A stretch of DNA of 64,000 bases. Source: Chiridota heheva (lineage: Eukaryota > Echinodermata > Holothuroidea > Apodida > Chiridotidae). Under the pieces are notes generated by a model. That model did not search any database. It worked only from the letters and a program-made list of their open reading frames with translations, and had not been told where the DNA came from. Below, piece by piece: positions 25,121-61,714 of the stretch; the first letter of the stretch is position 1; each line of letters starts with the position of its first letter. The position numbers and the translations under genes were made by a program. The stretch covers positions 1 through 64,000 of the forward strand of contig JAIGNY010000135.1 in assembly GCA_020152595.1 (NCBI GenBank), given 5' to 3'.

Positions 25121-28100
25121 GTGAAATTAATGGAAATGAAGACATTTTGCATTATTTTGGATTCTATTCAGATTGCTTTTACCAATCATTCAGTTTCAAT
25201 CTTTTAACTACAAGAATATTTACAAAGTTATACTCTTGTCATAATTTGTCATTGGTCAGGTTGATGGCGGAGAAGATAAACAAGATGGAGAGGAAGAATG
25301 AAGCATCAATCATCATGATGCACCAGGGAAGCGAGAGCCAGGAATTCTGGGATATCCTGGGCGGATACAAAGAAGATTTTTCACCAGAGGTCAGATCAAG
25401 TTTTGAGTTTTACGTGCCCCACAAACAAAAGTTTTGAGGAGTATGTTGTAGATTGTTAAGGATTCTGAAATAAAACCTTGGTGTAAGATAAAAACATGTG
25501 AATAGAATATGAATAAATACTCTTATTATGTCATCTCTTATACTTGGAGAAAACTATTTAAGTTGGTGAGAAATTTGTTTTGCACAGTCAACTATAACTC
25601 TGTCAAGTGATTTGCATAGGTAACTTTCCATAAGAAACATTAGTTTTGACATTGGTACTGCATTCAAGGTGATAAGTGCAGTCTCCTGATATGTCAAACT
25701 GATTGCATCATGATGTTAGTGGTCAGGGAGTCTCCTTGATATGTCAAACTGATTGCATCATGATGTTAGTGAGTCTCTGATATGTTTCTTGATGATGTTA
25801 GTGGTCAGGGAGTCTCTTGATATGTCAAACTGATTGCATATGTCTGATATGTCAAACTGATTGCTGATCTTAGTGGTCAGGGAGTCTCTTGATATGTCAA
25901 ACTGATTGCATCATGATGTTAGTGGTCAGTCTCTTGATGAGTCTCCTGATATGTCAAACTGATCACATCATGATGTTAGTGGTCAGGGAGTCTCTTGATA
26001 TGTCAAACTGATTGCATCATGATGTTAGTGGTCAGGCAGTCTCCTGATATGTCAAACTGATTGCATCATGGTGTTAGTGGTCAGGGAGTCTCTTGATGAT
26101 TGTGGTCAGGGAGTCTCTTGATATGTCAAACTGATTGCATCATGATGTTAGTGGTCAGGCAGTCTCCTGATATGTCAAACTGATTGCATCATGGTGTTAG
26201 TGGTCAGGAGTCTCATGATGTTGTGGTCAGGAGTCTCCTTGATATGTCAAACTGATTGCATCATGATCTTAGTGGTCAGGAGTCTCCTGATATGTCAACT
26301 GATTGCATCATGATCTTAGTGGTCAGGAGTCTCCTGATATGTCAAACTGATTGCATCATGATGTTAGTGGTCAGGGAGTCTCTTGATATGTCAAACTGAT
26401 TGCATCATGATGTTAGTGGTCAGGGAGTCTCCTGATATGTCAAACTGATTGCATCATGATGTTAGTGGTCAGGGAGTCTCTTGATATGTCAAACTGATTG
26501 CATCATGATGTTAGTGGTGGTCTTGATGATTGTGGTCAGTCTCTTGATATGTCAAACTGATTGCATCATGATGTTAGTGGTCAGGAGTCTCCTGATATGT
26601 CAAACTGATTGCATCATGATGTTAGTGGTCAGGCAGTCTCTGATATGTCAAACTGATTGCATCATGATGTTAGTGGTCAGGAGTCTCTTGATGATTGTGG
26701 TCAGGAGTCTCCTTATATGTCAAACTGATTGCATCATGATGTTAGTGGTCAGGAGTCTCTTGATATGTCAAACTGATTGCATCATGATGAGTCTCTTGAT
26801 GATTGTGGTCAGGAGTCTCCTTGATATGTCAAACTGATTGCATCATGATGTTAGTGGTCAGGAGTCTCTTGATATGTCAAACTGATTGCATCATGATGTT
26901 AGTGGTCAGGAGTCTCTTGATATGTCAAACTGATTGCATCATGATGTTAGTGGTCAGGAGTCTCTTGATATGTCCAACTGATTGCATCATGATGTTAGTG
27001 GTCAGGAGTCTCCTGATATGTCAAACTGATTGCATCATGATGTTAGTGGTGAGTCTTGATGATTGTGGTCAGGAGTCTCTGATATGTCAAACTGATTGCA
27101 TCATGATGTTAGTGGTCAGGAGTCTCTTGATATGTCAAACTGATTGCATCATGATGTTAGTGGTCAGGGAGTCTCCTGATATGTCAAACTGATTGCATCA
27201 TGATGTTAGTGGTCAGGGAGTCTCCTGATATGTCAAACTGATTGCATCATGATGTTAGTGGTCAGGGAGTCTCTTGATATGTCAAACTGATTGCATCATG
27301 ATGTTAGTGGTCAGGGAGTCTCCTGATATGTCAAACTGATTGCATCATGATCTTAGTGGTCAGGGAGTCTCTTGATATGTCAAACTGATTGCATCATGAT
27401 GTTAGTGGTCAGGGAGTCTCTTGATGATTGTGGTCAGGGAGTCTCCTTGATATGTCAAACTGATTGCATCATGATGTTAGTGGTCAGGGAGTCTCCTGAT
27501 ATGTCAAACTGATTGCATCATGATCTTAGTGGTCAGGGAGTCTCCTGATATGTCAAACTGATTGCATCATGATGTTAGTGGTCAGGGAGTCTCTTGATGA
27601 TTGTGGTCAGGGAGTCTCCTTTATATGTCAAACTGATTGCATCATGATGTTAGTGGTCAGGGAGTCTCTTGATATGTCAAACTGATTGCATCATGATGTT
27701 AGTGGTCAGGGAGTCTCTTGATGATTGTGGTCAGGGAGTCTCCTTGATATGTCAAACTGATTGCATCATGATGTTAGTGGTCAGGGAGTCTCTTGATATG
27801 TCAAACTGATTGCATCATGATGTTAGTGGTCAGGGAGTCTCTTGATATGTCAAACTGATTGCATCATGATGTTAGTGGTCAGGGAGTCTCTTGATATGTC
27901 CAACTGATTGCATCATGATGTTAGTGGTCAGGGAGTCTCCTGATATGTCAAACTGATCACATCAAGATGTTAGTGGTCAGGGAGTCTCCTGATATGTCAA
28001 ACTGATTGCATCATGATGTTAGTGGTCAGGAGTCTCTTGATATGTCAAACTGATTGCATCATGATGTTAGTGGTCAGGAATCTCCTGATATGTCAAACTG

Positions 28101-34100: not shown

Positions 34101-37100
34101 CTCTTTTTTCTTTAGCCATGGATTAAGGGAGATTTTGTTCCTGATAAACCCAAACTGTATAAAGTTGGACTCGGCACAGGTTACCTGGAACTGCCACAAG
34201 GTGAATTATTTAATATTCTTATTATCATTACAAGTAGGGTGAGATCCCCTTGTGGGAAAATACCTGGAAAAATGAAAAAGGCCAAGGGCCTGAAATACCA
34301 TTCACTTACCCTAAAAAATATAACAATAAATGGATCACAATTTAAGAAAGGTCAGCATTTGTTCAAAAAATAGTTAGTGACTGCCTTTCTGCAGTGCCCT
34401 AAGGAGTGAGCCTTTGCAGATCTTAACACTGTGGTTTGGCAAAGAAGGGAAGAAGTCTTTCTTGAAAATGATTGCTGAGCTAAAGAAGTCTCTCCAGCAC
34501 AGTTGTAATGATAAACCATGTGGTCAAGAATAAGACACGAAACACTGAAAGAATCTTGAACACTTATAACTTAACTAATATTGAAATGTTTCAGCCGTCC
34601 AATTTAAGAATCAAAGTTCTGTGTTAGATTTTGGTAGCTCTTATCTACACAGCTTATGAATGAATATTTTGGTAGCTCTTCTCTACACAGCTTATGAATG
34701 ATCATTTTAGTAGCTCTTCTCTACACAGCTTATGAATGATCATTTTGGTAGCTCTTCTCTACACAGCTTATGAATGATCATTTTGGTAGCTCTTCTCTAC
34801 ACAGCTTATGAATGATCATTTTGGTAGCTCTTCTCTACACAGCTTATGAATGATCATTTTGGTAGCTCTCTCGACACAGCTTATGAATGATCATTTTGGT
34901 AGCTCTTCTCTACACAGCTTATAAATGATCATTTTGGTAGCTCTTCTCTACACAGCTTATGAGTGATCATTTTGAGCTCTTTCTACACAGCTTATGAATG
35001 ATTATTTTGGTAGCTCTTCTCTATACAGCTTATGAATGATCATTTTTAGCTCTTCACTACACAGCTTATGAATGATCTAGCTCTTCTCTACACAGCTTAT
35101 GAATGATCATTTTGGTAGCTCTTCTCTACACAGCTTATGAATGATCATTTTGGTAGCTCTTCTCTACACAGCTTATGATTGAATGCTCTTCTCTACACAG
35201 CTTATGAATGATTATTTTGGTAGCTCTTCTCTACACAGCTTATGAATGATCATTTTGGTAGCTGTTCTCCACACAGCTTATGAATGATCATTTTGGTAGC
35301 TCTTCTCTACAAGGCTTATGAATGATCATTTTGGTAGCTCTTCTCTACACAGCTTATGAATGATTATTTTGGTAGCTCTTCTCTACACAGCTAATGAATG
35401 ATCATTTTGGTAGATCTTTTCTACACAGCTTATGAATGAATATTTTGGTAGCTCTTCTCTACACAGCCTATGAATGATCTGGATAACATTTTCTGGGAAT
35501 AGTTGTTTATTTAATGTCTTACTTGCAATATGAATCTTGCAGTTGTTAATCAATACACACACATAATATTTGATGTTATTTCATGCTTGTTGTCTTTCTC
35601 TTTCAGTTGATTTGGTGAAAGGCAAGCTTGTTCAGTCTCTCCTAGGCACCAAGAACGTCTACATCCTGGACTGTAATGCAGACCTATTTGTGTGGTAAGC
35701 TACTTCAAATCTTTAACAAATCTGGTATAGGCTATAAAGGACCCACATAAATAGCAAAACAGGGGTAAAAATATTTTTTTTAAATTGCCACCATTCCATG
35801 GAACAGTACTTCTCAAATAATACTGTTCCTGATCAAATTTCACTGTTCCTACTTTTTTGTCGATAACAGGACAAATTTTCCGTTCTTCAAAATGGACTTA
35901 AGTTGCAACTTCTTTTTTGGTTAATATGTAAAAATATGTATGTTATTAGTATTTACATGATGCAGCATCCAGTTGCATACAGTCAGTCATACATACTGTA
36001 TGCAACAGCCTTGCATGTGTGTATTCATTATTAATTGTAATGATGATTGCAGGCAAGGTGGGAAATGCTGTTTCTTAATTACTGCAAAAATTATTTTTAT
36101 GGTAATTTTGTTTCACAACATGCATTTTTGTAAAGCAGAAGTTTAGGTATTGATCATTGATGACATATGCTTGTAAATAAAACACTGTTCCACCGAAACA
36201 GTGATGTTTGGAAATGAACTTTTCCTGCACAAAAAGCACTGTTCTTGGAACTGCGGATAATTCAACTCCTGCCAAAAACTAAAGTATTTTCTTCTGTGAA
36301 GTTTCTCTTGTGACCTTTACAAACTAGTTAAGTTAAATCTATCCAAGCCCATACTAATTAGTGCCATTGCTCATCCCAGTTTCCATGACATAAGCACTGC
36401 CAGTACTTATCATGGAGCAAGTAGAGTAAAATGTCTTGCTCAAGGACACAATGTAGTGCTTGCAACAGGAGAGCTGCATTTAAACTTGAACACTAATTAA
36501 ACAAATAATCTAAACAAAGGTACTCTATAAATATTTTATGAATATTATCTTTGAGCTCTTAAGAGTTCATGAAAGTAATATTTAGTTGTTATTATTTGAA
36601 GGATTGGAAGGAAATCCAGTCGTCTGGTCAGAGCAGCTGCATTGAAGTTATCACAAGAACTGTGTGACATGCTGAAAAGGCCCAGTAATGCTTTGGTCAT
36701 CAGGGTGCTTGAGGGGTAGGTATATGAGGAGACAGCTTATCTTTGTAGGGTATCCTGATATGGGGAGACTACTTATCTTTGTAGGGTAACCTGATATGAG
36801 GAGACTACTTATCTTTGTAGGGTAACCTGATATGAGGAGACTACTTATCTTTGTAGGGTAACCTGATATGAGGAGACTACTTATCTTTGTATGGTAACCT
36901 GATGTGAGGAAACTACTTATCATTGTAGGGTAACCTGATATGACTACTTAATGGTAAGATTACTTATCTTTGTATGGTAACCTGATATGGGAGATTACTT
37001 ATCTTTGTAGGGTAACCTGATATGGGAGACTACTTATCTTTGTAGGGTAAGCTGATATGAGGAGACTACTTATCTTTGTAGGGTAACCTGATATTAGGAG

Positions 37101-40100
37101 ACTACTTATCTTTGTAGGGTAATCTAATATGAGGAGACTACTTATCTTTGTAAGGTAACCTGATATGAGGAGACTACTTATCTTTGTAGGGTAACCTGAT
37201 ATGAGGAGATTACTTATCTTTGTAGGGTAACCTGATATGAGGAGACTACTTATCTTTGTAGGGTAACCTGATATGAGGAGACTACTTATCTTTGTAGGGT
37301 AACCTGATATGAGGAGACTACTTATCTTTGTAGGGTAAAATTCTTGATTTATATGTATTTTGCAGGGTTTTTTTCTCATTTTGTTGTTTATCACTTAGGG
37401 AAGAATCAAATTTTTTATAAAAGTATGGTAAATAAATCAAATGTTGCTTTTGCTATTTATTAAGAAGTATTGTCTGCAAAGTTTTTTATATTTTTTTATT
37501 GAAAAAGAACTACTAAGCAGTTGTCCTGCAATGATTATCTTGGCATTGTTCCTAAGGTACTGTCACCTGCAAGCAATTTAATTTGATTTTATTCTGATTT
37601 ACAATCGTAAGAATAAAAATGGAACAAAATCTGTGTACTACAAGTGGTTTGACAGAATTATTAGTTTTCATGTCTTCTGATGAAAAAGTGTTTTAAAGTT
37701 TATGATGTCATAAGTTGAATAACTCTCCAGTTCTGGTATAAATCCATTGAAATTTAACCCTCAGCCAAAGTAGATGGAAATCTAGTAGCTCTCTCAATTT
37801 TACAAGTTTGTTTTGCCCCAACTGGCAATTAGTTGAGGGTCATCAATGGCTTAGTTTTTAAAACATGATTTAAATGATTTATTTTTTAAAAGATAGAATT
37901 TTATGAGAATTATGACTTGCTTTCAACTTGGTACAATACAAATTTGTAAGTTTTCATACTTTTTCTCAGTTACCTTTTTCTTTGTGTTTGGTATGGGTAT
38001 TAACTTATGTACATAGAGGTATTGGCAACCATTTCAATCATATTTTATAGCAGAAGGATGTTCCTGAGGTCATTTAATGAATGACATGGAAAATGCCTCT
38101 TTTTAAATGTCAGATATTCCTGTAACATCATTTGCTTTCTACTGCTGTTTTTAGTTATGAAGCTTTGCGCTTTAAGCAGTATTTTGAAGAATGGGATGAA
38201 ATATTAGCAGTGGACTACACTCTCTCAGCAGAAATGGTCATCAAATCTATGATTTCCAAGATGGGGTAGGGTCTGCATCCAGGAATGAGCGCTAAATTGC
38301 ACCAAATGAATGTTGAATCATTGACAAATGTGTCTGTTATGGTGTCCAATTAACATGCATGTGTGTTGGTTGTTTAAAAGCATTTTGTGGTTAGGCGTAA
38401 TGTCTATTGTAATGGAAAATGTCAAGTTATGTGGAAGTAGGGTGAAAAGGGTTCAGTATGGTGAAAAGGGTCCAGTATGGTGAAAAGGGTCCCATATGGT
38501 AAAAAGGGTCTAAGTATGGTGAAAAGGGTCCAGTATGGTGAAAAGGGTCCAGTATAGTGAAAAGGGTCCAGTATAGTGAAAAGGGTCCAGTATGGTAAAA
38601 AGGGTCCTGTATGGTGAAAAGGGTCCCATATGGTAAAAAGGGTCTAAGTATGGTGAAAAGGGTCCAGTATGGGGAAAGGTGTCCTGTATGCTGAAAAGGG
38701 TCCTGTATGGTAAAAAGGGTCCAGTATGGTGAAAAGGGTCAAGTATGGTAAAAAGTGTCCAGTATGGTAAAAAGGGTCCTGTATGCTGAAAAGGGTCCTG
38801 TATGCTGAAAAGGGTACAGTATGGTGAAAAGGGTCCAGTATGGTGAAAAGGGTCCAGTATGGTGAAAATGGTCCTGTATGCTGAAAAGGGTCCAGTATGG
38901 TAAAAAGGGTCAAGTATGACAAAAAGGTCCTGTATGCTGAAAAGGGTCCTGTATGCTGAAAAGGGTCCTATATGGTGAAAAGGGTCCAGTATGGTGAAAA
39001 GTGTCCTGTATGGTGAAAAAAGTCCAGTATGGTGAAAAGGGTCTAGTGTGGTGAAAAGTGTCCCATATGTTGAAAAGGGTCCAGTGTGGTGAAAAAGGTC
39101 CAGTATGGTGAAAAGGGTCCAGTATGGTGAAAAGTGTCCAGTATGGATCACCCTCAGTAGCAGACTTCCCGACTACTCATCCATCTTTTTAGCCGAGGCT
39201 AAGGCCATGCTCCTTGCCCTCAACTTTATTGAGTACTCCCCGCTCAGCCACTTTGTTATTTTCTCCGACTCAAAGGCTGTTCTTACTTCTTTACTCAATC
39301 TTAAATAGGATAACCTCACATGCCACCTCCTCCTTCGCAAAGTCCTTTCTCCAACCCTCTGCAGGAAAAGTATTCTTTTCTTCTGGATACCCAGCCATGT
39401 TGGCATTCTGGGTAACGACAGGACTGATGCAGCCGCTAAGCTTGCCCTCACCCTCCTCCCTGCCCCTTTTCCCAAAACCCTCTCTGACATCAAACCGCTT
39501 ATCGCTTCCCTTGTTCGAGACCGCTGGCAAACCTCATGGAAGTCCCAAATTGATAACAAACTCCATGTCATCCAGCCCACAATTCCGATCAAAGCCACCA
39601 TCAACAACCTCTCTCGTATTGACAACGTTCATATCACCAGTCTTAGAACTGGTCACACTCATCTCACCCACTCCCACCACCTTATTGGTTCCCCCCAACC
39701 CCTCTGCAACAATTGCCATTGCACCCTCACAATCCATCACGTTCTCCTTGCTTGCCCCCTGTACAACCTTCCCAGAGCTTCCCTCGCTCCCTACAACTCA
39801 ATTGCTAAGTTCTTCCAGAAAAATCCTTCGGATAAAATTATCTCCTTCCTTCATCATGCCTCCCTCTATGACCATATTTAATTCTCCTCTTCCACCCCCT
39901 CTCTACTTTGTTTTTGTTTCAACCATGCACCTCCCCTCACAATCACAGCTTTCTGACCTTTTGTCCTTAAATTTATCTCATTCTTCCCTTGTTTCCTTTA
40001 CTTCCTACCTCTAGAATGATCTGACCTCTCAGGCACAATTTGACCTTAATTGTTGTGGTGCCATTAAGCCATCATCAAACAAACAAACAAACCAGTATGG

Positions 40101-43100
40101 TGAAAAGGGTCCAGTATGGTGAAAAGGGTCCAGTATGGTGAAAAGGGTCCAGTATGGTGAAAAGGGTCCAGTATGGTGAAAAGGGTCCACTATGGTGAAA
40201 AGGGTGCAGTGTGGTGAAAAGGGTCCAGTATGTTGAAAAGGGTCCAGTATGGTAAAAAGAGTTTAGTATGGTGAAAAGGGTCCAGTATGTTGAAAAGGGT
40301 CCAGTATGGTGAAAAGGGTCCAGTATGGTGAAAAGGGTCCAGTATGGTGAAAAGGGTCCAGTATGGTGAAAAGGGTCCAGTGTGGTGAAAAGGGTCCAGT
40401 ATGTTGAAAAGGATCCAGTATGGTGAAAAGGGTCCAGTATGGTGAAAAGGGTCCAGTATGGTGAAAAGAGTCCAGTATGGTGAAAAGGGTCCAGTATGGT
40501 GCAAAGAGTCCAGTATGGTGAAAAGGGTCCAGTATGGTGAAAAGGGTCCAGTATGGTGAAAATGGTCCAGTATGGTGAAAAGAGTCCAGTTTGTGAAAAG
40601 GGTCCAGTGTGGTGAAAAGTGTCTAGTATGTTGAAAAGGGTCCAGTATGGTGAAAAGGGTTCAGTATGGTGAAAAGGGTCCAGTATGGTGAAAAAAGTCC
40701 AGTATGGTAAAAAGAGTCCTGTATGGTGAAAAGGGTCCTGTATGGTGAAAAGGGTCCAGTATGGTGAAAAGGGCCAGTATGGTGAAAAGGGTCCAGTATG
40801 GTGAAAAGAGTCCAGTATGGTGAAAATGGTCCAGTATGGTGAAAAGAGTCCAGTATGGTGAGTAGGGTCCAGTATGTTGAAAAGTGTCCAGTATGTTGAA
40901 AAGGGTCCAGTATGGTGAAAAGGGTCCAGTATTGTGAAAAGAGTCCAGTATGGTGAGTAGGGTCCAGTGTGGTGAAAAGTGTTCAGTATGTTGAAAAGGG
41001 TCTAGTATGGTGAAAAGGGTCCAGTATGGTGAAAAGGGTCCAGTATGGTGAGTAGGGTCCAGTATGGTGAAAAGTGTCCAGTATGTTGAAAAGGGTCCAG
41101 TATGGTGAAAAGGGTCCAGTATAGTGAAAAGGGTCCAGTATGGTGAAAAAGGTCCAGTATGGTGAAAAGGGTCCTGTATGGTGAAAAGGTTCCTATGATG
41201 TGTTAGGGGTGAAGTATTATTGCAAGGGTCCAGTGTTATGGAAAGTGCCCATCATAATGGCTCCAGTGCTCCAAAAATGTTATGCAAAACATCTAGTGTG
41301 GTGGAAAGGCTTCAGGAGGTCTTGTGTTTTATGGAAAGGGTCTAGTATTACATATATTCATCATATGTGTTGTTTAAATGGCAAGTCAAGTTTTGGGGAA
41401 AACGATATTTTTCAAATACATTTTTGGAAATGCCCATATGATGAAGTTGTTCTCTCCATTTGTCATCAAAATCAATAATCAGATAATTTTGAACTTAAAA
41501 TATTAAAGCAAAGCAAAGCATCGGCTGCCTAACTTTATAGAGATAAGATATTTTTCCAATTTAATATTTCATGTTCGGCTGTATTTTCATTAAACTATCA
41601 ACTTGTGATATTTCATCCCATTTTCATCAGTTTTCTGTTGTATGTGTCATGTAATCATTCTACTCATTGATTTATGCTGATTTGTAATTGAATTAAAAAC
41701 TTACCTGCATAAAAATGTCTTCAATTATATCTTTATTCGTTACTCAACTACAACTGAAGAGAAGCAACTTTCCAAAACTTTTTAGATAAAGCAGCGATAT
41801 CATTTAATTTCAATAACACACTGATTTTAATGGCTTCAATCACAAAAATATGCATTTGTAGCTATTTTTCTAAGAACCTCCATGCAAGGGAAACATTATT
41901 TTCATTTTCAAAGTAAGACAATATACAGTTCTACAAGTATGACAAAGCAAATAACTTCAGCTTGTTTGAAAAGTAAAAAAAATCTTGCATGGAGCTGTAA
42001 AAAGTGTTATGGCTTTAAAGACAGCTTTATCAAATATAGGAAGATTTTACCATTGTAAGCATGTTGGAGATAAACCTAGTGGAAATTATCATTTTTTATT
42101 TCTTTAAAAGTGATTTTTAAAACAAATTGTCTCAGTATTTGAGAAATCTTACAGACAAGCATGAATTTGTATTGTCTGTTGTAAAAATGGCTGGAATAGA
42201 GAGGGACAACATGTCGCACGTTATTCCCTTGCTTAGTCCTTTCTCTGCTTTGTAAATTTGCAGTGTTTGATTGTTGTATGTTTTTAACACTTTAATATGA
42301 GTTGAGAGTAGAACACTGCAAGAGGGGTAATTCATAGTCAATATCTCCAAATTGAACATATTTTTTGAATATCTTAATGAGTTAATTTGCTCAAAGAAAT
42401 TACATTAAAATCCAGTCCAATTCAATGAATTTGGTCATCAAGGCCACAATTCAGAAAATATTTATAGAAAACATTTGTTTAAATAGATTTTAAGACTATT
42501 ACAATGCAGGTAGGTGGTCAACGACTAATTGCAAAATTGGTCAGTAAGTACCCATCAGCATGAGTAGCTAAAGATCAAGTTGAAAACAATAAACTGTACC
42601 GTACCCTTTATAAACATTTGATTAAGAATGACACAATGTTGTCTTTGATTGAGATGCACTCAGAATGAAGTGATAGTTTATGCACAGTAACCCTCATCAT
42701 GTGGAAGGTAAAACTGCAGGCCTTAGGAATTGCCATCTAAAGATGAGGGCTTAGCTCCCTAATCCTTGTCTTTCTACAGGGGGAAACTACAGATCCCTAA
42801 ACTCTCTACATTCATGATCAACATTAGTGCACAAACCTATCTTGTGAAAGATACTGGCACCTATACTTGCTACCTGTGTTACTGGTGAACCCTTATTATG
42901 CAGCAAGCTGCCTAGTATGTGATCAGGATTAACACTTTTCCGCGGTTTATTCCGTACGACACAGACTGCGGAATGGGGTGTGCTAGGTCCATTCCACAGT
43001 CTTGTGTCGTACAGGACAGACATCGGGATCGCCCTTTTTGCCTTATAAGGGAATTTTGATTTGACGTGCAATCTCACCCAGTGCTACCATTTGTGTGTTC

Positions 43101-46100
43101 GTTACTAATCATTCATTGATTGTAGATTGCAGCTTATTGTCTATATTGCATTCTTGACTGAATATCAACAAGCTGTGTTATATATTGTTCTAACAATCTG
43201 TTGTGTTAAACATGTGTATTGTGTAAAAGTAAAAACAGTTTGATTCTAATGATATTTGACACTAAAACTTGCATGATGTTGAGGATTGATTTTACACCTT
43301 AAGGTCAGCGAGTCACACTGCTGTTTGCTTGTAACAAGTGAGGAGTGCCCAGTAACATGCATATGATTAATAATGTTACATATCTGAGATAATAGAAGTA
43401 TAATGTAATGTATATAATAAAGCTAAACATCCAGCTATTATTGAAAGAGTACTCGGCTCAGATGCATTAAAAAGAGTACTCGGCTCAGATGCATTGAAAG
43501 GAGTACTCGGCTCAGATGCATTGAACAGAGTACTCGGCTCAGATGCATTGAAAGGAGTACTCAGCTCAGATGCATTGAAGGAGTACTCGGCTCAGATGCA
43601 TTGAAAGGAGTACTCAGCTCATATGCATTGAAAGGAGTACTCAGCTCAGATGCATTGAAGGAGTACTCGGCTCAGATGCATTGAAAGGAGTACTCGGCTC
43701 AGATGCATTAAAGGAGTACTTGGCTCAGATGCATTGAAAGGAGTACTCAGCTCGCTCAGATGCATTGAAAAAAAGTACTCGGCTCAGATGCATTTAAAGG
43801 AGTACTCGGCTCAGATGCATTAAAGAAGTACCCGGCTCAGATGCATTGAAAGGAGTAGTCGGCTCAGATGCATTGAAAAGAGTACTCGGCTCAGATGCAT
43901 TGAAAGGAGTACTCAGCCCAAATGCATTAAAAGGAGTACTCGGCTCAGATGCATTGAAAGGAGTTCTCAGCTCAAAATGCATTGAAAGGAGTACTCGGCT
44001 CAGATGCATTGAACAGAGTACTCTGCTTAGATGCATTGAAAGGAGTACTCGGCTCAGATGCATTGAAAGGAGCAGTCGGCTCAGATGCATTGAAAGGAGT
44101 ACTCGGCTTATATGCATTGAAAGGAGTACTCAGCTCAGATGCATTGAAAGGAGTACTCGGCTCAGCTGCATTGAAAGGAGTACTTGGCTCATATGCATTG
44201 AAAGGAGTACACTCAGCTCAGATGCATTGAAAGGAGTACTCGGCTCATATGCATTGAAAGGAGTACTCGGCTCAGATGCATTGAAAGGAGTACTCGGCTC
44301 AGATGCATTGAAAGGAGCAGTCGGCTCAGATGCATTGAAAGGAGTAGTCGGCTCGGATGCATTGAAAGATCGGCTCAGATGCATTGAAAGGAGTACTCGG
44401 CTCAGATGCATTGAAAGGAGTACTCGGCTCAGATGCATTGAAAGGTGTACTCGGCTCAGATGCATTGAAAGGAGTACTCAGCTCATATGCATTGAAAGGA
44501 GTACTCAGCTCAGATGCATTGAAAGGAGTACTCAGCTCAGATGCATTGAAAGGAGTACTCGGCTCAGATGCATTGAAAGGAGTACTCGGCTCAGATGCAT
44601 TGAAAGGAGTACTCTGCTCATATGCATTGAAAGGAGTACTCAGCTCAGATGCATTGCATACTCGGCTCAGATGCATTGAAAGGAGTACTCAGCTCAGATG
44701 CATTGAAAGGAGTACTCAGCTCATATGCATTGAAAGGAGTACTCACCTCAGATGCATTGAAAGGAGTACTCAGCTCAGATGCATTGAAAGGAGTACTCTG
44801 CTCAGATGCATTGAAAGGTGTACTTCGCTCAGATGGAAGGTGGGTTTTCAGGGGTCCCTATGATAATCAAAAACTTGCTGTAGCTCTTCATTTGCATGAA
44901 TATTCAAAATCAACTCTGAATCAATCAATCCATTGCTCTCCTGTTTAGTTCTTACTTGAAGCTTGTGATGATTGAAGAATAGTCAAATGCACTCTTTGGA
45001 AGAAGATGCTCCTAATGAGATCACGGACACTTCACTCACCCATAAGTGTTCCTTTGAAAATAACCTGGTGGTGGTCAAAAACTATTTGGAAGGGTCATTT
45101 CAATTCTATGATCTTCCATGTGCAGTTCTGTTTATGGTTGCCAATTTTTGGTTTACAACTAGAGTGAAAAGATGACATTTAGACCAGCATATAAAACAAT
45201 AGATTTGAAGAAGTTTTGTTTTGCTACTTTGGGAAATTCTTGTTCATGAGTTGATTTTTTCAACTAAAGAATTTAGCGTCCCAATGCATATTTTACTCAT
45301 TTGTAGCTTACAGTTGGATATTGCTGGTAAATTACATTTTAAAAAGATATTTGCATGATTTATAATTTTGTGAGTAGAAATTTTAAGAATGAAAGCTAGA
45401 CAAACAAAAACTGTCAAATGATTGTCTCTGAATTTTTCTGTTATGTTATTAAAGTTTCCATTTATACATGATACAAGATTGTGCTTTGTATCCTTAGGAA
45501 AATGTTGTGCAATTCATGTATTCTTTGTACAGTCAAATTACAATTATATTAGAATCTCGGATCAATTAATTAATAATGAAATGAGAAATATTAAACTCAA
45601 GATTGTAGGTTCTATAAAACTTGTGAAATATTTGTATTATTTTTTAAACACCTTCAATCCTTTTTTTAAATCTAGATCAGAGAGCCAGATTTTCAAATCC
45701 AAGTTCCCTGGATGGGATGATGTCCTGGTTGTAGATTACACCAGAAAATCAGAGGAAGTAGCACGGAAACCTCACATTCAAATGGTAAGACTTTAAGGGT
45801 GTCACCTGTGGGTCCCACAATATTGCACTTTAAGTTTCTGTAGTTTAAGGAAGATCAATAGTTGATGTTTATAGCTTACAGTTGAAGCAAACTAAATATA
45901 TTGGCAGGAGTATGGATGGGGGTCACCTCTTCAAAATGCAGGCCTTTTGTAGGATGATTTTTTCATTTTGATTTTATCCTGATTTTACCTCCACTTTTGG
46001 TATTGGGAAACGTTCCCTTTAAATTTTATTGCTGGAGAAAGTTTGAAAAATTCTGCATTCCTAGTTCTTGGAGAGTGAACAGCTCACCTTTCTAAAGCTG

Positions 46101-49100
46101 TTGTTGACCTGAAACTGTTATGTTTGCCTTTGAGGACATCTAACGGACCTTTTCAAACCGACTTTAGCCGAATGTGATTTCTTCAGTACTTCGACCATTT
46201 AAATGCTTAGGGAACATTTCTTTTGTTTCCCAACCAATCAGGTGCAGGATTGAGGGAAAAAATGTAAGCAGCAATACTTGCACGTGTTTCCTTCAAGTTT
46301 AACGCACATATGATACGTGCGCTTGCAAGCATTTTATCATACACTTGGTCCCATACCGTGCATGAATTGTGCAGACGGCCAAGATTCCTCAGTATATTTT
46401 TTGATCAATAAGATTCCTCCAGTATACCATTGGTCCATTATGGACACGTGAATCTTGGCCATGTGACATTATTTAAATAAGTTATCCGGAAATTGCCGAA
46501 TCAGATTTGAAAAGGTCTATAGTAAGATTAATTTGTTGTCACGGAATCAGTTGATCACACAATGTTTGCTGTTGATTTGCGATTAATTCACCAAGTGTTT
46601 AGTCACCAAAATTTGTAAGTGTTTAACGATTAATCGGAACCAATCTTTACCCAAAAATTGACAACAAAAAATAATCTGTTAAGTCTTCAACAAAATTTTG
46701 TGGAACTGGTACAGCTCCCACACAAGAAGACCATGCATTTTCGGAAAACAAATAGGCCAAAAATCTTACCAAAAGGCAAATATCATGCCTTAACATTACC
46801 CGCAAGGCTGATAAAACTGGTTGAAAATCAAAATCCTGGGATTAGTAAAAATATCAGCAAGAAATGTTACCGCTTTCGGCCTTACTTAGCGCCGCTGAAG
46901 TCACTTTCCTAGTTTGACAGCTGCTGTAACAAAATAGTTTATTTACAGACCATACCTTGATATAGGTTTTAAAAAGCCCCACCAATTATTTTGCTCCAGC
47001 TTGTACACTAAGCCACCCGTATAGTATGTTCGTGATAAACTGTTTGAAAACTTGACTAAACACTTTGAAGAGTTGTGAGCAATTGGCAATTTATAGCTAA
47101 TCTTTAACAGCACTAGTCTAACACAACGTTGTAGTTAGATATTTGTTTCTATTTTTAATGGTTTTATTTTCTTCCTATTTTGTTTGAAAAAGCAAGATAC
47201 AACTTTTAAAAGACACCTGGTTTTCATGGCCTTTAATCTCAATATTACACATTTTTTAGATATTTCTTTAACAATTTTAATACCAGATGAACATTGTTTT
47301 CATATTTGGTCCGATGCGATAGCATCAGGAACCTTTGCGGCCGTGTGTGGTGTGTATGTATGTGTGTAGTGTGTATGTATGTGTGTGTATGTGATGGCCA
47401 TATCGTAAACTAGATATCTCAAGAGTGATTCAGTGGATTTGTGTCATATGTGGTACACAGATAGCCCATAATCCGTTGATGTGCCCTAATGTTTTTGATG
47501 GTGATGTCATGTCTATTAATAAGTAATCGGGGCTTAATGAAAAATTCTTGAAATGTTCATATTTTAACATCGGCATGTCTGTTTTGTTTTGTATTTGGTA
47601 TACTTATGATATTAGCTGGTGTGTACATATTCATGATGTAAAAACATTGAATTTCATTAATATGCATAGTAGGCGAGGCTTAATATGATTTTGCTGAAGA
47701 GAGCTTGTAAACACAGTATCTCAAGAACGGTAAATTGGATTCATATTATATTTGGTACACAGATAGCCTATGGTCAGTAGATGTGCCCCATTGTTTTTGA
47801 TGGTGATGTCATACATATTATGTAGTAGGCGGGGCTTAATGTAAACATCTTGAAATGCTTTCATTTTGATAAGCGCATGTCTGTTTTGCTTCATATTTGT
47901 TATAAAAATGATGTTAGCTGTTATGTATGTTTTCATTGTATAAAAACATTGAATTTCATTAATATGCATAGTGGGTGGGGCTTAATATGATTTTGTAAAC
48001 AACAAGCGTGTAAACATAATATCTGAAAAACAATGAACCGGATTCACGCCGTGTGTGGTACACAGATAGATAGCTCATGGTCAGCAGATGTGCCCTCATG
48101 CTTTTGGTAGTGATTTCATGCATATTAGTAAGTAGGCGGGGCTTAACGTGAAAATGTGATAAATGAGCAAGTGTATGTGCGTTTTGCATCATTGGGTATG
48201 ATAATATTGTTGGTTATGTCATTAAATTTCATTATATGCATGGTAGGCGTGGCTTAATGTGAAAGTGCCAAAGGATGCAAACACCATACTGTATCTCATG
48301 AACTGTATATCAGATTTATGTCATATGTCGTACACAGATGGTCATGGTCTGTACATATGTTCTAATGTTGTGGTAGTGATGTCTTGAATATTAATGAATA
48401 GGCGGGGCTTACTGTCAAATTATTGAAATAGGATAAATGAACAACCGTGTTTGCATCATACTTGCGATGATAATGTTATTGATTATTGTGCACATGCTTG
48501 GGCTAATGTTGTCAACAAGTTGTATTTGATTGATCTGCATGGTGGGTGTGGCTTATGAATAAATATCATGGAACAAATATTTCATGATATGCAATGACAT
48601 GGCAGTTTATACAAAACTTGCAAATCAATCAGCTGATGAAAAAAGCATCAGAATTATAAAAACCTTTTGGTTCTGGTTAAGTTGAGATGACAGTTACACA
48701 ATTGCAGATGTTTCATTCATTTTGCTGTTTAACAATGATAGAAGTAATCCTTAATTCATTTTCTTACTTTGATGGTTTTGTTGACTGCTCAATGTATTCC
48801 GATATTCTCTTATTCTCATCATACAGGGCAGTCATTCTTGTGTATAGTTTACATTAGTATCTGTGTGTAACCTATTATGCTCATTAAACAAGCCATTGTA
48901 TCTTGGATGGAAAAAAGTATTTTTCATCATTTTATCTTAAAATAACATAATTCATTAGTTAAATTCCATCAATTTTGACTTTCGTGGTCTAGGGGTCATA
49001 GTATCAGCTTGGCATGCTAGTGGTCCTAGGTTTAATTCCCAATGGGTCTTCATTCATTCATCAGCGCTTCACAAACGGCCGTGGGTATCTCTGTATAGAC

Positions 49101-52100
49101 CTTTTCATATCAGAATCAGCAATTTCCAGGAAATAATGTAAATAATGTCACATGCCCGAAATTCATGTGTTCTTTATGGACCAATGGTATACTGGGGAAA
49201 TCTGTTCGTCCGGTCAAAAACTTGGGAATCTTGGCCATCTGCACAATTCACACACAGTATAGGACCAAACGTATTAAAAAAAGGCTTTTTAATGCACTTA
49301 TCATACATATGTTATACATGAAGGTAAAACGTGTGCGCAAAACTTCAAAACTGCACCTGATTGATCTGGATACAAAGGGAAAATTCCCCCAGCATTTGAT
49401 TGGTCGAAGTACGGAGTAAACTCGACCAAACTCAGTTTGAAAAGGTCAACAACCTTAGCTGTTGAGGGACGCTAAATACCCAAACTACCTACCAACAATT
49501 TTAAAGAAGAGTGTGCATGTTTGTTTGTTTCAGGATTCTGAACCCAGAGCGGCTCTGAAGACGGACCTGTCCGCTCTGTTCATGCCTAGGCAACCACCCA
49601 TGAACAACACAGAGACTGTAAGTTACTACCCTTTTGAGCCGCATATACTTTATGAAGTCAATTACAAACTGATTAATTTACAGCTCTTCGAATTCTCAAT
49701 TCTGAAAATGAGAGATACGCCAGAATGTGGTGTCATATGATGTCATTTTTATTTTGAATATATGGCATTTAGATCCTATAAAATGGATTGAAATTTACAC
49801 CAGAATGATCCCAGATAAGTTGTGCATTTGAGTATGGAGACAAATATTATTTTAGAGAAGGTGTGGTCAGTGTGTGTGGGTGTGTGTGTTTGCTTGAGGA
49901 GGAAGAAGGGTATATGGGACCCTATTTGAAACATTTTGATGCCTTTAAAATGTTTTTGAAGTTTGCTGCAGTTAATGTGAGAATGAGACCCAATTGCAAG
50001 AAGATTAATTTTCTTGCAACTCATTCATAAAGTAGACATTTTGTTGACACTTTTGTAAATTATGAAGGGGTATAAGCTAAACAAGAATTTGAGTTATATG
50101 GAATGTTTGGCAATTAATTGCTTGGAGATTTTGTTTCTCTTACCTCAGAAAGTTCAAAAGAGCATGTTTCAATAATTTAATTAATAAGTAAAATTAATTA
50201 ATTAATGATGAATAATTAATTTCTATGTTTTAGGATCAGTTGATGGAGGAGTGGAATGAGGACCTGGATGGAATGGAGGCTTTTGTTCTTGAAGGCAAGA
50301 AGTTTGCCAGGTTACCAGACAAAGAACTCGGTGTGTATTAAGCTATACACATTCACGTTTGCTCTAACTTATTGTGTAATACAGAATTACCTTTGTCAGT
50401 TTTTAAGTTGAATATCTTCTTAATGTCTTTAAATTACGTCAAAGGCACCTGTAGTTTCCAAGTTTTGGTTAATCAAAGTTAGAATAATTTTTAATTCATG
50501 TAAAACTTGTGATGTATTAAAGAGAAGACAGCTCAGAATCTTTCATGTAATTCTGTAAATTTCTGTCCTAAATTTTCTATCACTGACAATCACCAGACAA
50601 TTCTCCTGCTAAATATTTAATTTTTTTGATGGGAGATTTAAAGCCTCTTCGTCATATTCAACCTCTCCCATTCAAATAATGTTGGGGAAGGATTGAAAAA
50701 CAATAAGTAAACATATGGAAATTCATTTGTTCCTGTGTTGATTTTTCAAAATTTTAATAAAATTTGCATAATTCATTATAAAAAGGTGTTGAAATTTAAA
50801 ATGCTGTAAAATAGTCAATTTTCAACCAATTTTGATTGAATTTTTGGCTGTTTTCATGGTTTATAGCCTATTTTCATGGACAATAGCCTATTTTAATGGT
50901 TTATAGCCTATGTTTATGGGTTATAGCCTTTTTTCATGGGTTATAGCCTATTTTCATGGTTTATAGCCTATTTTTATGGGTTAAAGCCTATTTTCATGGT
51001 TTATAACCTAATTTCATATGTTATAGCCAATTTTCATGGGTTATAGCCTATTTTCATTGTTTATAGCCTATTTTCATGGCTTATAGCCTATGTTCTGGTG
51101 TTATAGCCTATTTTCATGGTTTATAGCCTATTTTTATGGTTTATGGCCTATTTTCATAGGTTATAGCCTATTTTCATGGTTTATAGCCTATTTTCATAGG
51201 TCATAGCCTACTTTCGTGGTTTATAGCCTATTTTCATGGGCTATAGCCTATTTTCATGGGTTATAGCCTATTTTCATGTGTTATAGCCTATTTTCATGGT
51301 TTATAGCCTATTTTTTAGTTTATAGCCTATTTTTATGGGTTATAGCCTATTTTCATGGGTTATAGCCCATTTTCATGGTTTATAGCCTATTTTCATGGTT
51401 TATAGCCTATTTTCATGGGTTATAGCCTATTTTCATGGGTTATAGCCTATTTTCATGGGTTATACAGTAGCGTATTTTCATAAGTTAAAGCCTATTTTCA
51501 TGGTTTATAGCCTATTTTCTTGGGTTGTAGCCTATTTTCTTGGGTTATAGCCTATTTTCTTGGGTTATAGCCTATTTTCTTGGGTTATAGCCTATTTTCT
51601 TGGGTTATAGCCTATTTTTATGGGTTATAGGCTATTTCTGTGGTTTACAGCCTATTTCTGTGGTTTACAGTCTATTTTCGTGGGTTATAGCCTATTTTCG
51701 TGGGTTATAGGCTATTTTTGTGAATTATAGCCTATTTTTGTGGGTTGTAGCCTATTTTCATGGTTTATAGCCTATTTTCTTGGGTTGTAGCCTATTTTCT
51801 TGGGTTGTAGCCTATTTTTCTAAGTTGTAGCCTATTTTTCTGGGTTATAGCCTATTTTTGTGGGTCATAGCCTATTTTCGTGGGTTATAGCCTATTTTCA
51901 TGGGTTATAGCCAATTTTCGTGAATTATAGCATATTTTTGTGGGTTTATAGCCTATTTTTGTGAGTTACAGCCTATTTTCGAGAGTTATAGCCTATTTTC
52001 ATGGGTTATAGCCTATTTTTCTTCAAATGAAGATCAATGTGTTGCTGCCTGTTCATAGATCTTGAAGCAACCATGCTTAACCACTAATACCATCTTCTAA

Positions 52101-55100
52101 TGCAAGGATGACTGGTAAACAAACTTAGCATCCCTGTCATTACATACATTGTAAATTATGATAGTTTAATGATGATGTTGGATTTTATACAGTGGCCTTG
52201 TACCTTGTTGCTTTTTGATTATCAAGTGTCAAGGTTTTATGCTGATATGATTTATTGCATAAGTTTCATGTTGATAATATGTATTGCACTATATCTGTTT
52301 CAGGTCACTTTAATAGTGGTGATTGTTATGTGTTCCTTTGTCGCTACTGGGTGCCCAAAGACCTAAAAGAGGGTGAAGAAAATGAAGAGGGGGAGAATGT
52401 AGATGATGAAGAAGAGGAAGTGGAAGAAGATGACTTTCAGTGCACAGTTTATTTCTGGCAAGGGCGTGATGCTAGTCAGATGGGGTGGCTTACATTTACA
52501 TTCAGTCTGCAGAAGAAATTTGAGTCGTTATTTCGGAATAAATTGGAAGTTGTAAGACTTTTCCAAGTAAGTGACTGTCTGTTCTTCCTTCCAAACCATT
52601 CACTGCAAACGTTGTAGGATGCAATAATGTATTCCATCTTCAACAAAATCTCCTTTGTTCGATCAGTTTGTGATTCCTTCCAAACCATTCACTGCAAACG
52701 TTCCAGGATGCAATAATGTATTCCATCTTCAACAAAATCTCCTTTGTTCGATCAGTTTGTGATTCCTTCCAAACCATTCACTGCAAACGTACCAGGATGC
52801 AATGATGTATTCCATCTTCAACAAAATCTCCTTTTTCCGATCAGTTTGTGATTCCTTCCAAACCATTCACTGCAAACGTTCCAGGATGCAATAATGTATT
52901 CCATCTTCAACAAAATCTCCTTTTTCCGATCAGTTTTATGTTCATGATTAAGTTTTCAGTATAGTTTCATCTCTTTATAGCATCTTCCAAAGTGACATGA
53001 CTCAGTGCAATTTCTGGGCAGAGAACTGATATTTGACAAATTTTAAAACATCTTTTATTGCAATGACTTTACTTTCGGCTATGTGGAATTTAACTCCCCT
53101 GCTTTCCCTGCCTTAGTTATTTCATATATGTCAAAAGGTTTTGATTATCCTATCTGGCCAATTAAAATTTTAGTTTGTTGTATCTACTCCATCATGTTTG
53201 TTCTATTGTCTGTAGATACTGTAGCACAACCTCATTTGTAAGTACCAAAAACCATGCTGGTGCAACCATGTCATTACCTGATGGGTCAAACTTTAAGGTT
53301 TTCCTTTTTCCTTTCAGCAACAAGAGAATTTAAAATTCCTTTCTCACTTCAAGAAGAAGTTCTGCATCCACCGTGGAAAGAGAAGGTTCGGGAAACAGCT
53401 GGAAGAGCCAGAGAAGCACGACATGAATCCCAGAATGCATCACATCCGAGCCAACGGGGATCCTTTGCACACGCTGCATAGAGGTTCCACCTGCAACATT
53501 GTGGCTGAATTCTGAATTTTGGTAAGGACTGATCATGTGACTGGAAAATTTATGAAAGAATGGAAGGATTTTTATCTATTGGTTAAAACCCATAAGAAAT
53601 GTTTTATTTTTACATTTGTACTCTTTACAGATGAAATCAATTCTTAACAATGCTGATTACTTTTTACTTTTTTTTATGTTTCTGTCTCATATGGAAAATC
53701 CACAATTCAGGGTGAAAACCTGGTATTTATCTGCTTTCATCCCAGTCAAATCAATTATATGGGCGTACACCATCAGCTGAAGTGACCATTGAGTAATGCT
53801 TGTCTATTGGATACATGCAGAATATGAATTAACCTATCTTAGATGATTGACAGCTTTTTCAACCAATCACTGCATGAATTTAACTAGCAACAAAATCTGC
53901 ATAACTAAGTAGGCAAAAATCCATGCGCAATACTGGTACAGTACAGCAAGCTAGTGGCGCGCTTTTGAGGTCAATGCAATATACTATACAAAACAAATTT
54001 CTGCACACTCAGACTGAGTGACAACAAAATGGTGAACAAACATTTCGCCACGGACTCGCTACGGGCATTGTAAATAAGAATTCCGTTACCCAGAATGTTA
54101 AGCAAATGGAATTTTGTTTATTCCTTCTGCTAAAAACTCTAAAGATTGGGGAAAGTGCCATAAATAGATCAAAACTTACAGCAGGCCACATGAACATTTA
54201 AATGGCAATGCATTGGTAATGCATGATAGTGTATTTGAGGTTTGTTTGCCCCTCCTAGTTTGCTATGGTGGGTGTGGCTTATTTCCTAATCCAGAGACGT
54301 TAATTGATTGATGATAGAATGAATGGTATGTTGCACTTTTAAGCAATTTTTAATGAGTTTTTTTTTAGAATTATATTAAGGTGCATAAAAGTTGTATTTC
54401 CTGAGTGAGTGTGGGGCCGTTGATGTTCACATATCAGTGTGGGGCCGTTGATGTTTACTTGTCAGTGTGGGGCCGTTGATATTCACATGTCAGTGTGGGG
54501 CCGTTGATGTTTACTCGTCAGTGTGGGGCTGTTGATGTTAACATGTCAGTGTGGGGCTGTTGATGTTTACTTGTCAGTGTGGGGCCGTTGATGTTCACAT
54601 GTCAGTGTGGGGCCGTTGATGTTTACATGTCAGTGTGGGGCCATTGATGTTTACTTGTCAGTGTGGGGCCTTTGATGTTTGTCAGTGTGGGGCCGTTGAT
54701 GTTTACTTGTCAGTGTGGGGCCGTTAATGTTTACTTGTCAGTGTGGGGCCGTTAATGTTTACTTGTCAGTGTGGGGCCGTTGATGTTAACATGTCAGTGT
54801 GGGGCCATTGATGTTTACTTGTCAGTGTGGGGCCTTTGATGTTTGTCAGTGTGGGGCCGTTGATGTTTACTTGTCAGTGTGGGGCTGTTGATGTTTACTT
54901 GTCAGTGTGGGGCTGTTGATGTTTACTTGTCAGTGTGGGGCAGTTGATGTTAACATGTCAGTGTGGGGCCGTTGATGTTTACTTGTCAGTGTTGGGTCGT
55001 TGATGTTTGTCAGTGTGGGGCTGTTGATGTTTACTTGTCATTGTGGGGCCGTTGATGTTTACTTGTCAGTGTGGGGCTGTAGATGTTAACATGTCAGTGT

Positions 55101-58100: not shown

Positions 58101-61100
58101 TTTGACTATGACCTTGCAGTCTAGTATCAATGTAAGTTACTGTATGTGACTTGTAACACTTATCTTCATATCAGTGAACTTTGGAATGAATTAAGAGTTG
58201 TCTTCAGGCCCTTCTTGAGTACATTAAGTAGACTAAGGAGGTCTGTTTAGAGTCAGTTTTTAGATAATTACCTTGTTAAAGCTGCCTCTGGTGTAGGTCC
58301 TCGATGGTTACTACAGAGGTTTACATCAAATTGGATCTTTGGAGAGTATTCTTATGGTAGTACCTGTTGGGTGGTCCCACAAGCTAGGAATAGTTATATC
58401 ATTTATAGACCTGTACAAGACTATGGCATATTCATTCCCTTTTCATCTTGTCTGTGTGGTTGCAGTAAAGGTGTGAAGTAGCAGGTTATGGATGAGACCT
58501 GAACTTTTAAGTCTTTGGTTGCCAGAATAATGCTAGTGGAAGACAGGGATATCATGCAGTGTCATTTATGGAGATCCATGTTGTAGTGGATTAAGGACCT
58601 TGCAACGTTGATTTATGTGTCCTATAACTAATTAGGAAAGTGGTAATTAAAACAGTCCTGAATCAATTTTTGGACTAAGTTTCTGGAGCATATTTACTTA
58701 CATTTCAGGTACTGTAAGCTGTCCATTTGGTTTTTAGTTTCTCCTCCTTCCTTTCATTACCAGGAAGATGTTTCGAAGATTGGATGGACTTTGTAATAAT
58801 AGCATGTACAAGAATTTTGTTTATCTATTTTTGACTAAGGTTGGAGCTTTATTGTAAGTGCCACGATTATAGGGCTATCCTGGCATTTTATTGTCAGAGT
58901 TAAGTAGAGTATGTAGCTCTATCTGCCAATTTGCCTTTAATACAAGACTTCCTTGTATGATAGTTGAACTGTTGAGTGCTCACTAAGTTCATTATTTGCA
59001 ATGGGTTAAGCAGCAGAGAGTAGTTTCTTTCTATCTCAGCGCCTGCAGGTTGTGGTTGGAGTAGTTCTTTTTAGAGTGTGCTCCCCACCTCCCAGTAAGC
59101 TATGAATTTGTAGCCTATTGTATAATTGTGGTAGCAGGTAAGTATGTTGTGTGCCAGAGAATCATATTTCCCCTGAAATAGTCTTCTCCTAGCATTAAGA
59201 TACTTACCTGCTAGATTCCATCCCACCTCCCTACTGGAGCTGACTGTTTCCATAGGAGCGTTTTTGCTTTCCGCCGCAGTTTACTAGAGGGAAGAGGGTC
59301 TATGGGCCAAAGAGCCCGGGGTGAGAATTTTTCCAGCAATTTTGAGTGAGGTCGAGAGCTGTAGCCTATTGTATTATTGTGGTAGCAGGTAAGTACTGTA
59401 TGTTAGTGCTAGGAGAAGAGTATTTCGGTAGGGAAATATTCTATCCTATTTTGTACTGCGATTTTGTGGCTTAAAAACCATTGCATATGTCATGAAAGTA
59501 GTAAAACAGAATCTAGTGAGGTAATTATTATTCACCACCTGAAGAAACTTTGAGGAATTCAAGTAGTAAAATAGTTGAATCAATTTCTTTTAAATATATT
59601 AATAATTGTAAAGAATGTGAGGGCGTCAACCTTCCATAGTATACTTACTACACCAGTCATTCTACACAGATAAAACAGAGCTTTAAACTTGATTATCTTT
59701 TTAAGAATAATGAATGTTTTCTTCATTATTTTGTTTCCTTTAAGATCCTCTTTCTTATATCATAAGATAAACTTGCTTGACCACTGAACTAATCCGTTAA
59801 GAATATGAGAATGATTGGTGAGATGCATATAGCACGTGATGCCATTTTGAGTTTCCTAAAAAGGAAATCTACTGTTTGTACCAAGAAGCTGAGAGCTGCT
59901 AAGGGATCACACGTAGTACCAGGAGTTACCAGATAAGGTGTTGTATGATGTATGAAGCTTTTAAGCTTTGTGAGGATTCTGAAGCTTCTTTGTAAATCCT
60001 CAAGACTTATTGAAAGATTTTTGGTTCCGTGTGATAGCATAAGGAACCCATGTACAGTAGTCATGCTGGCGTGTATATGTATACGTGTAAGGGTGTATGT
60101 ATGTGTGTAAGTATGTATGTGTGTCTGTGACAGAAACTTGTAAACATGATATCTCAAGAACAGTGTGGTGGTTTTCACCCATACACCTCCTCTCTCGATC
60201 CCAGCTTTCTGGCTTTTAGTTCTCGTGTTCTCTCAATCTCCCCCTGTTTGCTCTCCTTCCTACCTCTGGAATGATCTAACCTCTCAGGCACAATTTGACC
60301 TTTGCTGTTGTGGTGCCGTTAAACTCTCATCAAACAAACAAACAAACATACTTAATATATGGATGTGTTGTGGTCTGCAGATGTCTGTGGTCCTATTGTT
60401 TTTGGTGTAGATGTCATGAATATTAAATAGTAGGCGGGGCTAAATGTAAATTTCTGTTAACAAGATTGTAAACACGATATTTTAAGAACCGTGTGGTGGA
60501 TTTATGTCATACATGGTATAGGGATGTGCTGTTGTTTGTAGATGAGCCTTATTAATTTTGGTGTTGATGTCATGAATATGGATTAGTAAGCAGGGCTAAA
60601 TGTAAAATTCTGTTAACAAGCTTGTAAACATGATATCTCAAGAACAGTGGTGCATTTATGTCATACTTGGTATATGGATGTGTTTTGGTCTGTAGGTGAT
60701 CCCTATTGTTTTTGTGGTGCTGGTGTCATGAATATTAATTAGTAGGCGGGGCTAAATGTAAAATTCTGTTTAGGTTCATATTTCCACAAACCCATGTCAT
60801 ATTTAAATCAAACTTGGTGTGATGCTGCTGATAAAAGCAGGAATCTCACAGAATGTGGAGTTAATGACTTCATCATTATTCATGTCATGTGGAACCAAAT
60901 ACAATTTTTTATAAGGTGTTGTGATTGTGACCTATAACTTTAGGCAAAAACCCTAACACTTGAACAAGCAACAAAATATACACGAATTACATGTTCCAGT
61001 ATGATAAATAAACTAAACGTGTAAGAACACAACATTTAAAGATATACAATATAAACAAAAAATGCTTCTAATCCAAAGTTAGCATCGGAACCACGTGGGA

Positions 61101-61660: not shown

Positions 61661-61714
61661 GGAAAATATAAAGAGATGATAAGATGTCTAGAGTGTTCAT
61701 TTTACTTGTCTTAG

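What the first reader, a model, noticed from the sequence alone, without database searches (positions are those of the whole stretch)
38155..45784. Flightless-1 carries two homologous copies of the exon that closes gelsolin repeat 3
Seen: 38155-38265 and 45676-45784 both have good splice sites, both are open, and both encode F.xxF..WD..L.VDYT..xE. Copy A ([12 protein letters not shown]) and copy B ([12 protein letters not shown]) are clearly diverged yet neither is decayed. Phases are asymmetric: A is 2 to 2, B is 2 to 0. So A can be added before B (a protein with about 37 extra residues repeating this segment), or skipped; A replacing B by simple splicing would give a frameshift and an early stop, unless the weak donor after 38236 is used. 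Known: other Flightless-1 proteins I can recall have one such segment. Inference: a regulated cassette or near-mutually-exclusive exon that could alter the repeat 3 to 4 linker, or switch expression off through nonsense-mediated decay.
Basis: partly seen in the sequence, partly recalled or inferred. Interest (0 to 1): 0.82.

Follow-up and report, generated by a model that had tools for sequence, protein, structure and literature searches.

The report
Duplicated exon in animal Flightless-1 gene
The cytoskeleton gene Flightless-1 of an unnamed animal carries two old, still protein-like versions of one small exon, so it could make proteins with a changed joint between their two actin-binding halves, though no RNA evidence was available.

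Summary
The window holds the gelsolin half of an animal Flightless-1 gene. Exon B (45676-45784) is the canonical exon closing gelsolin repeat 3. A second version, A (38155-38265), lies 7.4 kb upstream. A and B match at 14 of 36 residues but only 44 of 108 bases (8 of 36 third positions). The similarity score is 65, against at most 32 in 500 shuffled introns. Permuted differences give such identity in an open copy once in 100,000. A was therefore held by protein-level selection after an old duplication. A can be added before B in frame; it cannot replace B by the ordinary sites. Similarity lies mainly in codons 5-22; A's tail is not shown to be homologous. No transcript or animal relative could be reached. 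Best reading: an ancient tandem-exon duplicate used as an alternative exon, mode unresolved; a new instance of a known kind.

The parts
36602..36715 (+). Flightless-1 exon before the pair ([38 protein letters not shown]), ends in phase 2
   Evidence: translation; tblastn 74% identity to the recalled human probe
38155..38265 (+). Exon copy [37 protein letters not shown], phase 2 to 2, 111 nt; an in-frame TAG overlaps its donor
38155..38236 (+). Possible shorter form of copy A ending at the weak ATG|GTCATC donor, 82 nt, phase 2 to 0, which could replace B in frame
   Evidence: length mod 3; donor score 2.8; 180 of 661 other intronic GTs as good
38263..38267 (+). G-run (38263-38266) and T of the donor GT of copy A; the base count here sets the phase of the exon
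   Evidence: sequence; two frameshifts elsewhere in the model make short-run counts uncertain
45676..45784 (+). Exon copy [37 protein letters not shown], phase 2 to 0, 109 nt; the canonical copy
49534..49617 (+). Next exon, [28 protein letters not shown], phase 0 in
49548..49617 (+). Same exon if the AG 14 nt downstream were used; would accept copy A in frame (loses DSEPR)
   Evidence: offset 14; acceptor score -4.5

Best explanation
Exon A is an old tandem duplicate of the exon that encodes the end of gelsolin repeat 3 and the start of the repeat 3-4 linker of Flightless-1. Shown: the homology, the open frame, the phases and past protein-level constraint on the copy. Inferred: it is spliced into some transcripts. 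As the sequence stands, the one frame-preserving use with ordinary splice sites is A placed before B, giving a protein with 37 extra residues between repeat 3 and repeat 4, while B alone gives the standard protein. A would then close repeat 3 and B would become part of a longer joint between the two actin-binding halves (inference; no model of the whole repeat was made). The confidence given is for this additive optional exon; that A is a real, selected coding exon of this gene by one route or another I put at about 0.85.
For: Homology far beyond chance (65 against a maximum of 32 in 500 shuffles). Constraint: 14 of 36 residues kept with only 44 of 108 bases and 8 of 36 third positions kept. 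With the observed number of differences at each codon position dealt out at random, an open copy with 14 or more identities arises 1 time in 100,000 (0 in 100,000 with A and B exchanged; 2 and 1 if open frames are not required), and the observed similarity score 0 in 100,000 either way. A is 111 nt, phase 2-2, so A then B reads through in frame. A's donor and acceptor score within the range of the gene's own sites. None of AATAAA, ATTAAA, AGTAAA or TATAAA occurs in 38151-40200, against use of A as a last exon.
Against: No transcript, read or relative was available. A's sites do not stand out: 85 of 662 other GTs and 47 of 640 other AGs of the intron are as good. Exon B is phase 2-0, so a faithful duplicate could not have been added in frame; a swap is the more natural original role, and 377 of 629 human mutually exclusive clusters (60%) hold exons of lengths not divisible by three (PMC5740500, passages). 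The gene model has two frameshifts, so the G-run that sets A's phase may be miscounted. The last 9 codons of A are not clearly homologous. The constraint test rests on two sequences, speaks for the past and cannot exclude recent loss of use.
Confidence: 0.4

Rival explanations
1. A and B are mutually exclusive exons: A replaces B, so each transcript closes repeat 3 with one of two versions. In-frame use needs A's donor to be in phase 0, through a miscounted G-run in this assembly or the weak donor at 38236, or else a linked shift to the acceptor at 49548.
For: B is phase 2-0, so a faithful duplicate could only work as a swap. A aligns with B without gaps over 36 codons, and A ends ATG|GGGT where B ends ATG|GT. 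F, F, W, D, L and VDYT, which I expect to serve the fold, are kept in both copies. The same gene model contains two frameshifts. Similarity is clear only to codon 22 and possible to codon 27, which ends at 38236.
Against: As read, A to the next exon gives GILNPERL and a stop. The 38236 donor scores 2.8 and 180 of 661 other intronic GTs are as good; the 49548 acceptor scores -4.5. Intron A-B is 7.4 kb, so no steric exclusion.
Confidence: 0.33
2. A is a dead relic or one whose use was lost recently: once functional, now skipped always.
For: Middling splice sites; weak similarity in the last 9 codons; phase does not match B; two frameshifts elsewhere could mean a decaying gene or allele.
Against: Open over 36 codons with third positions at 8 of 36 identical; with as many differences dealt out at random 12 to 13% of copies stay open, and one open copy in 100,000 keeps the identity.
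Confidence: 0.13
3. A is always included together with B: this animal simply has a longer joint.
For: A+B is in frame.
Against: With both always present, one copy should be free to lose the fold residues; neither has. This is an argument, not a test.
Confidence: 0.07
4. A is a poison switch: A joined to the next exon, or both copies skipped, gives an early stop and decay of the message.
For: Both joins give a stop soon after the junction.
Against: A switch exon needs no conserved protein sequence, yet A is conserved as protein; a stop after mis-splicing is common and proves nothing.
Confidence: 0.07

Closest known systems
Mutually exclusive exons from tandem exon duplication (human atlas, PMC5740500; passages seen)
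   Same: Adjacent homologous exons in one gene, similar length (111 and 109 nt), same acceptor phase, the canonical copy not a multiple of three
   Different: As read, A's donor phase differs from B's, so a plain swap breaks the frame; no RNA support; a length difference of 2 nt falls outside that atlas's prediction rule (steps of three)
Flightless-1 (FLII) of other animals
   Same: Order and sequence of the gelsolin exons; B plus next exon match the human segment (recalled probe)
   Different: A second copy of the repeat 3 closing exon; I recall one in the human protein, not tested on retrieved records
Repeat 3 of gelsolin and CapG (8vkh, 1j72)
   Same: B aligns with their end of repeat 3 (ETPLFKQFFKNW, ESPIFKQFFKDW)
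   Different: The VDYT stretch is not in the aligned part; A shares 6 of 16 with gelsolin and 6 of 12 with CapG, B 6 of 16 and 7 of 12

Membership tests
Flightless-1 gene | Gelsolin repeats in Flightless-1 order with its exon sequences | tested here: met
   16 exons located in order with a recalled human Flightless-1 probe, 41 to 83% identity, joined by AG and GT sites; Pfam PF00626 on 3 of 3 spliced pieces, E 2.6e-16, 2.3e-16 and, with A added, 6.3e-13. No retrieved Flightless-1 record was compared
Flightless-1 gene | N-terminal leucine-rich repeats | not tested
   They would lie before the first exon I modelled, at 1952; not searched for
Flightless-1 gene | Intact reading frame | tested here: not met
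   Two frame changes inside exons in 2088 coding bases as read; assembly error or real
Tandem exon duplication | Adjacent exon of the same gene with sequence homology beyond chance | tested here: met
Tandem exon duplication | Copy kept under protein-level selection | tested here: met
   on one pair of sequences; no relatives
Mutually exclusive exons | Either copy alone keeps the reading frame | tested here: not met
   As read: B alone yes, A alone no with ordinary sites; depends on the G count at 38263-38266
Mutually exclusive exons | Transcripts hold one copy and not both | not testable with these tools
   No RNA data
In-frame cassette exon | Length a multiple of three, same phase at both ends, no stop | tested here: met
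   111 nt, phase 2-2, open
In-frame cassette exon | Seen included and skipped in RNA | not testable with these tools
   No RNA data
Alternative last exon | Stop codon followed by a polyadenylation signal | tested here: not met
   TAG follows at once (38267-38269), but none of four hexamers in 38151-40200

The most novel reading that the evidence does not exclude
The copy is as old as the split between major animal groups (A matches a recalled human segment at 16 of 31, B at 18 of 31, A and B each other at 13 of 31; [quoted passage not shown]
Probability: 0.2. Interest if true: 0.65.

Novelty: new member of a known kind. Interest (0 to 1): 0.42.

Why it matters
Gelsolin opens its two halves on calcium (established knowledge); [quoted passage not shown] A second version of the segment between the halves would offer a different control, by splicing. 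It is also a clean test case: if A swaps with B, a protein module has been kept twice for a very long time in a gene for which my searches showed no report of such exons; if A adds to B, it may show how a duplicate with the wrong phase was made usable by a small change at its donor.

Tried and rejected
Alternative last exon: not supported, none of four polyadenylation hexamers in 38151-40200. Wider duplication of the region: blastn of 37301-39000 against 44701-46900 gave five short pieces (best E = 0.003), none pairing A with B. Other duplicated exons: with the gelsolin-half probe, at E below 0.1, this exon alone is hit at two places. Relatives: none by the search for related loci with 199 residues in viral contigs (1 pattern match, no relative) or 292 residues in genome contigs (35 pattern matches, no relative); these hold viruses and prokaryotes, so this says nothing about animals. 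No whole genome is held. Solved structures: A alone no match up to E = 10; the segment with B gave 22 sequences up to E = 1, CapG, gelsolin, adseverin and fragmin by name, no Flightless-1. Structure prediction of A and B as 36-residue pieces: mean pLDDT 62.4 and 61.9, not informative. Rfam and tRNA scans: nothing. The taxon was not identified.

Papers (open-licence library only). No paper holds 'flightless', 'gelsolin' and 'mutually exclusive exons', nor 'gelsolin' and 'tandem exon duplication'. Of 173 papers holding two of 'flii', 'flightless', 'exon duplication', 20 were listed, all with 0 of the last term. One paper held 'flightless', 'alternative splicing', 'isoform' and 'gelsolin domain'; its five passages on splicing or isoforms concern other proteins or reference titles. 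Of 30 papers holding 'flii' and 'mutually exclusive' 20 were listed; three that concern splicing or splicing factors were opened at the word and speak of LRRFIP1, not FLII; the rest were judged by title and start of abstract. A five-term search gave 2 papers: one was opened and 12 of 14 passages seen, using 'flightless' for a fly trait; the other was not opened. Of 105 papers on gelsolin, linker and caspase terms 10 were listed. The human exon atlas names FLII, flightless or gelsolin 0 times in its main text.

A first, all-neutral simulation (0 of 20,000) was replaced by the stricter per-codon-position test because B's own silent changes could inflate it. Splice scores had one acceptor off by a base and counted A among its own controls; one search corrects both.

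Full report
What is in the window. A probe of human Flightless-1 (recalled) places 16 exons of the gelsolin half on the + strand between 1952 and 61479, with AG before and GT after each; Pfam finds gelsolin repeats in 3 of 3 spliced pieces. The leucine-rich repeats were not part of the probe, and the end of repeat 6 was not found by it; neither was modelled. The species is unknown; the introns carry many minisatellites and G+C is 36%.

The pair. Exon A, 38155-38265, and exon B, 45676-45784, both follow the exon 36602-36715 in phase 2. B ends in phase 0 and joins 49534-49617 to give [58 protein letters not shown], which by recall is the standard Flightless-1 segment. A ends in phase 2. A then B is open and in frame; A to the next exon, and skipping both, give GILNPERL and a stop.

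Is it more than chance? Yes. B's 36 residues score 65 against A, 9 and 11 at best in the intron before and after A, and 32 at most in 500 dinucleotide shuffles of the intron. The probe finds it as well, E = 5.7e-6.

Is A constrained? A and B share 14 of 36 residues, 44 of 108 bases and 8 of 36 third positions; the synonymous distance is saturated. With the differences at each codon position dealt out at random, 12 to 13% of copies stay open, the mean identity is about 6, and 14 or more identities in an open copy occur once in 100,000 (0 with A and B exchanged); the observed similarity score was not reached in 100,000 either way. So the copy was held as protein long after the duplication. This rests on two sequences and cannot date the event. 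By identity to a recalled 31-residue human piece, A (16) is about as near to human as B (18), while A and B share 13: a hint, no more, of great age.

What limits the reading. First, the similarity sits in codons 5-22 (10 of 18); codons 28-36 match at 2 of 9, a score that 4.2% of open intron pieces reach. Second, A's splice sites are within the gene's own range but ordinary: 85 of 662 other GTs and 47 of 640 other AGs of the intron score as well. Third, the gene model changes frame twice inside exons, in 9405-9645 and in 53318-53521 (2 in 2088 coding bases). These are assembly errors or real lesions; I cannot tell which. Since A's frame downstream hangs on the GGGG at 38263-38266, a small miscount there would turn A from an additive exon into a swap partner in frame.

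Mechanism. As read, the ordinary use is A added before B: 37 more residues between repeat 3 and repeat 4. The history argues for a swap, since a faithful duplicate of a 2-0 exon cannot be added in frame, and since both copies keep the residues expected to close repeat 3. I weight additive 0.40, swap 0.33, relic 0.13, constitutive 0.07, poison switch 0.07. Use of A as a last exon is not supported (none of four polyadenylation hexamers in 38151-40200).

What is known. Duplicated exons are a well described kind; in the human atlas 377 of 629 mutually exclusive clusters hold exons of lengths not divisible by three, so that double inclusion breaks the message (PMC5740500, passages). Its main text does not name FLII or gelsolin. 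The searches listed under Tried and rejected found no report of such an exon in Flightless-1; they cover open-licence papers only and long lists were seen in part. [quoted passage not shown]

Verdict. A true and well preserved duplicate exon, probably in use; a new instance of a known kind.

Noticed in passing
9405-9645 (near 9610) and 53318-53521 (near 53460): The Flightless-1 model changes frame inside each of these two exons while the modelled splice sites keep AG and GT: assembly indels or real lesions.
   Followed up: partly
14464-24388: A 10 kb array of a 15-base unit (about 661 copies, 93% matches) inside one Flightless-1 intron; its period is a multiple of three, and it leaves very long meaningless open frames on both strands.
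   Followed up: no
52585-52936: Four copies of an 89-base unit, 96% matches, beginning about 20 bases after a Flightless-1 donor.
   Followed up: no
39464-40095, 61695-62158 and 62263-62879: Dispersed repeat, 81 to 88% identical, one copy in the A-B intron; four open frames there and elsewhere gave no Pfam match above cut-off, one with [18 protein letters not shown], which from memory recalls the end of LINE elements.
   Followed up: partly
47342-48421 and 60084-60783: Family of diverged repeats with phrases like GGCGGGGCTTAATG, 68 to 79% alike.
   Followed up: no
46146-46521 and 49094-49447: Inverted pair of a dispersed repeat, 72% identical, in the intron after exon B.
   Followed up: no
25260-25389: The donor that fits this exon's frame is GAG|GTCAGA, with C at the third intron base, so GTC donors may be used in this gene.
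   Followed up: no
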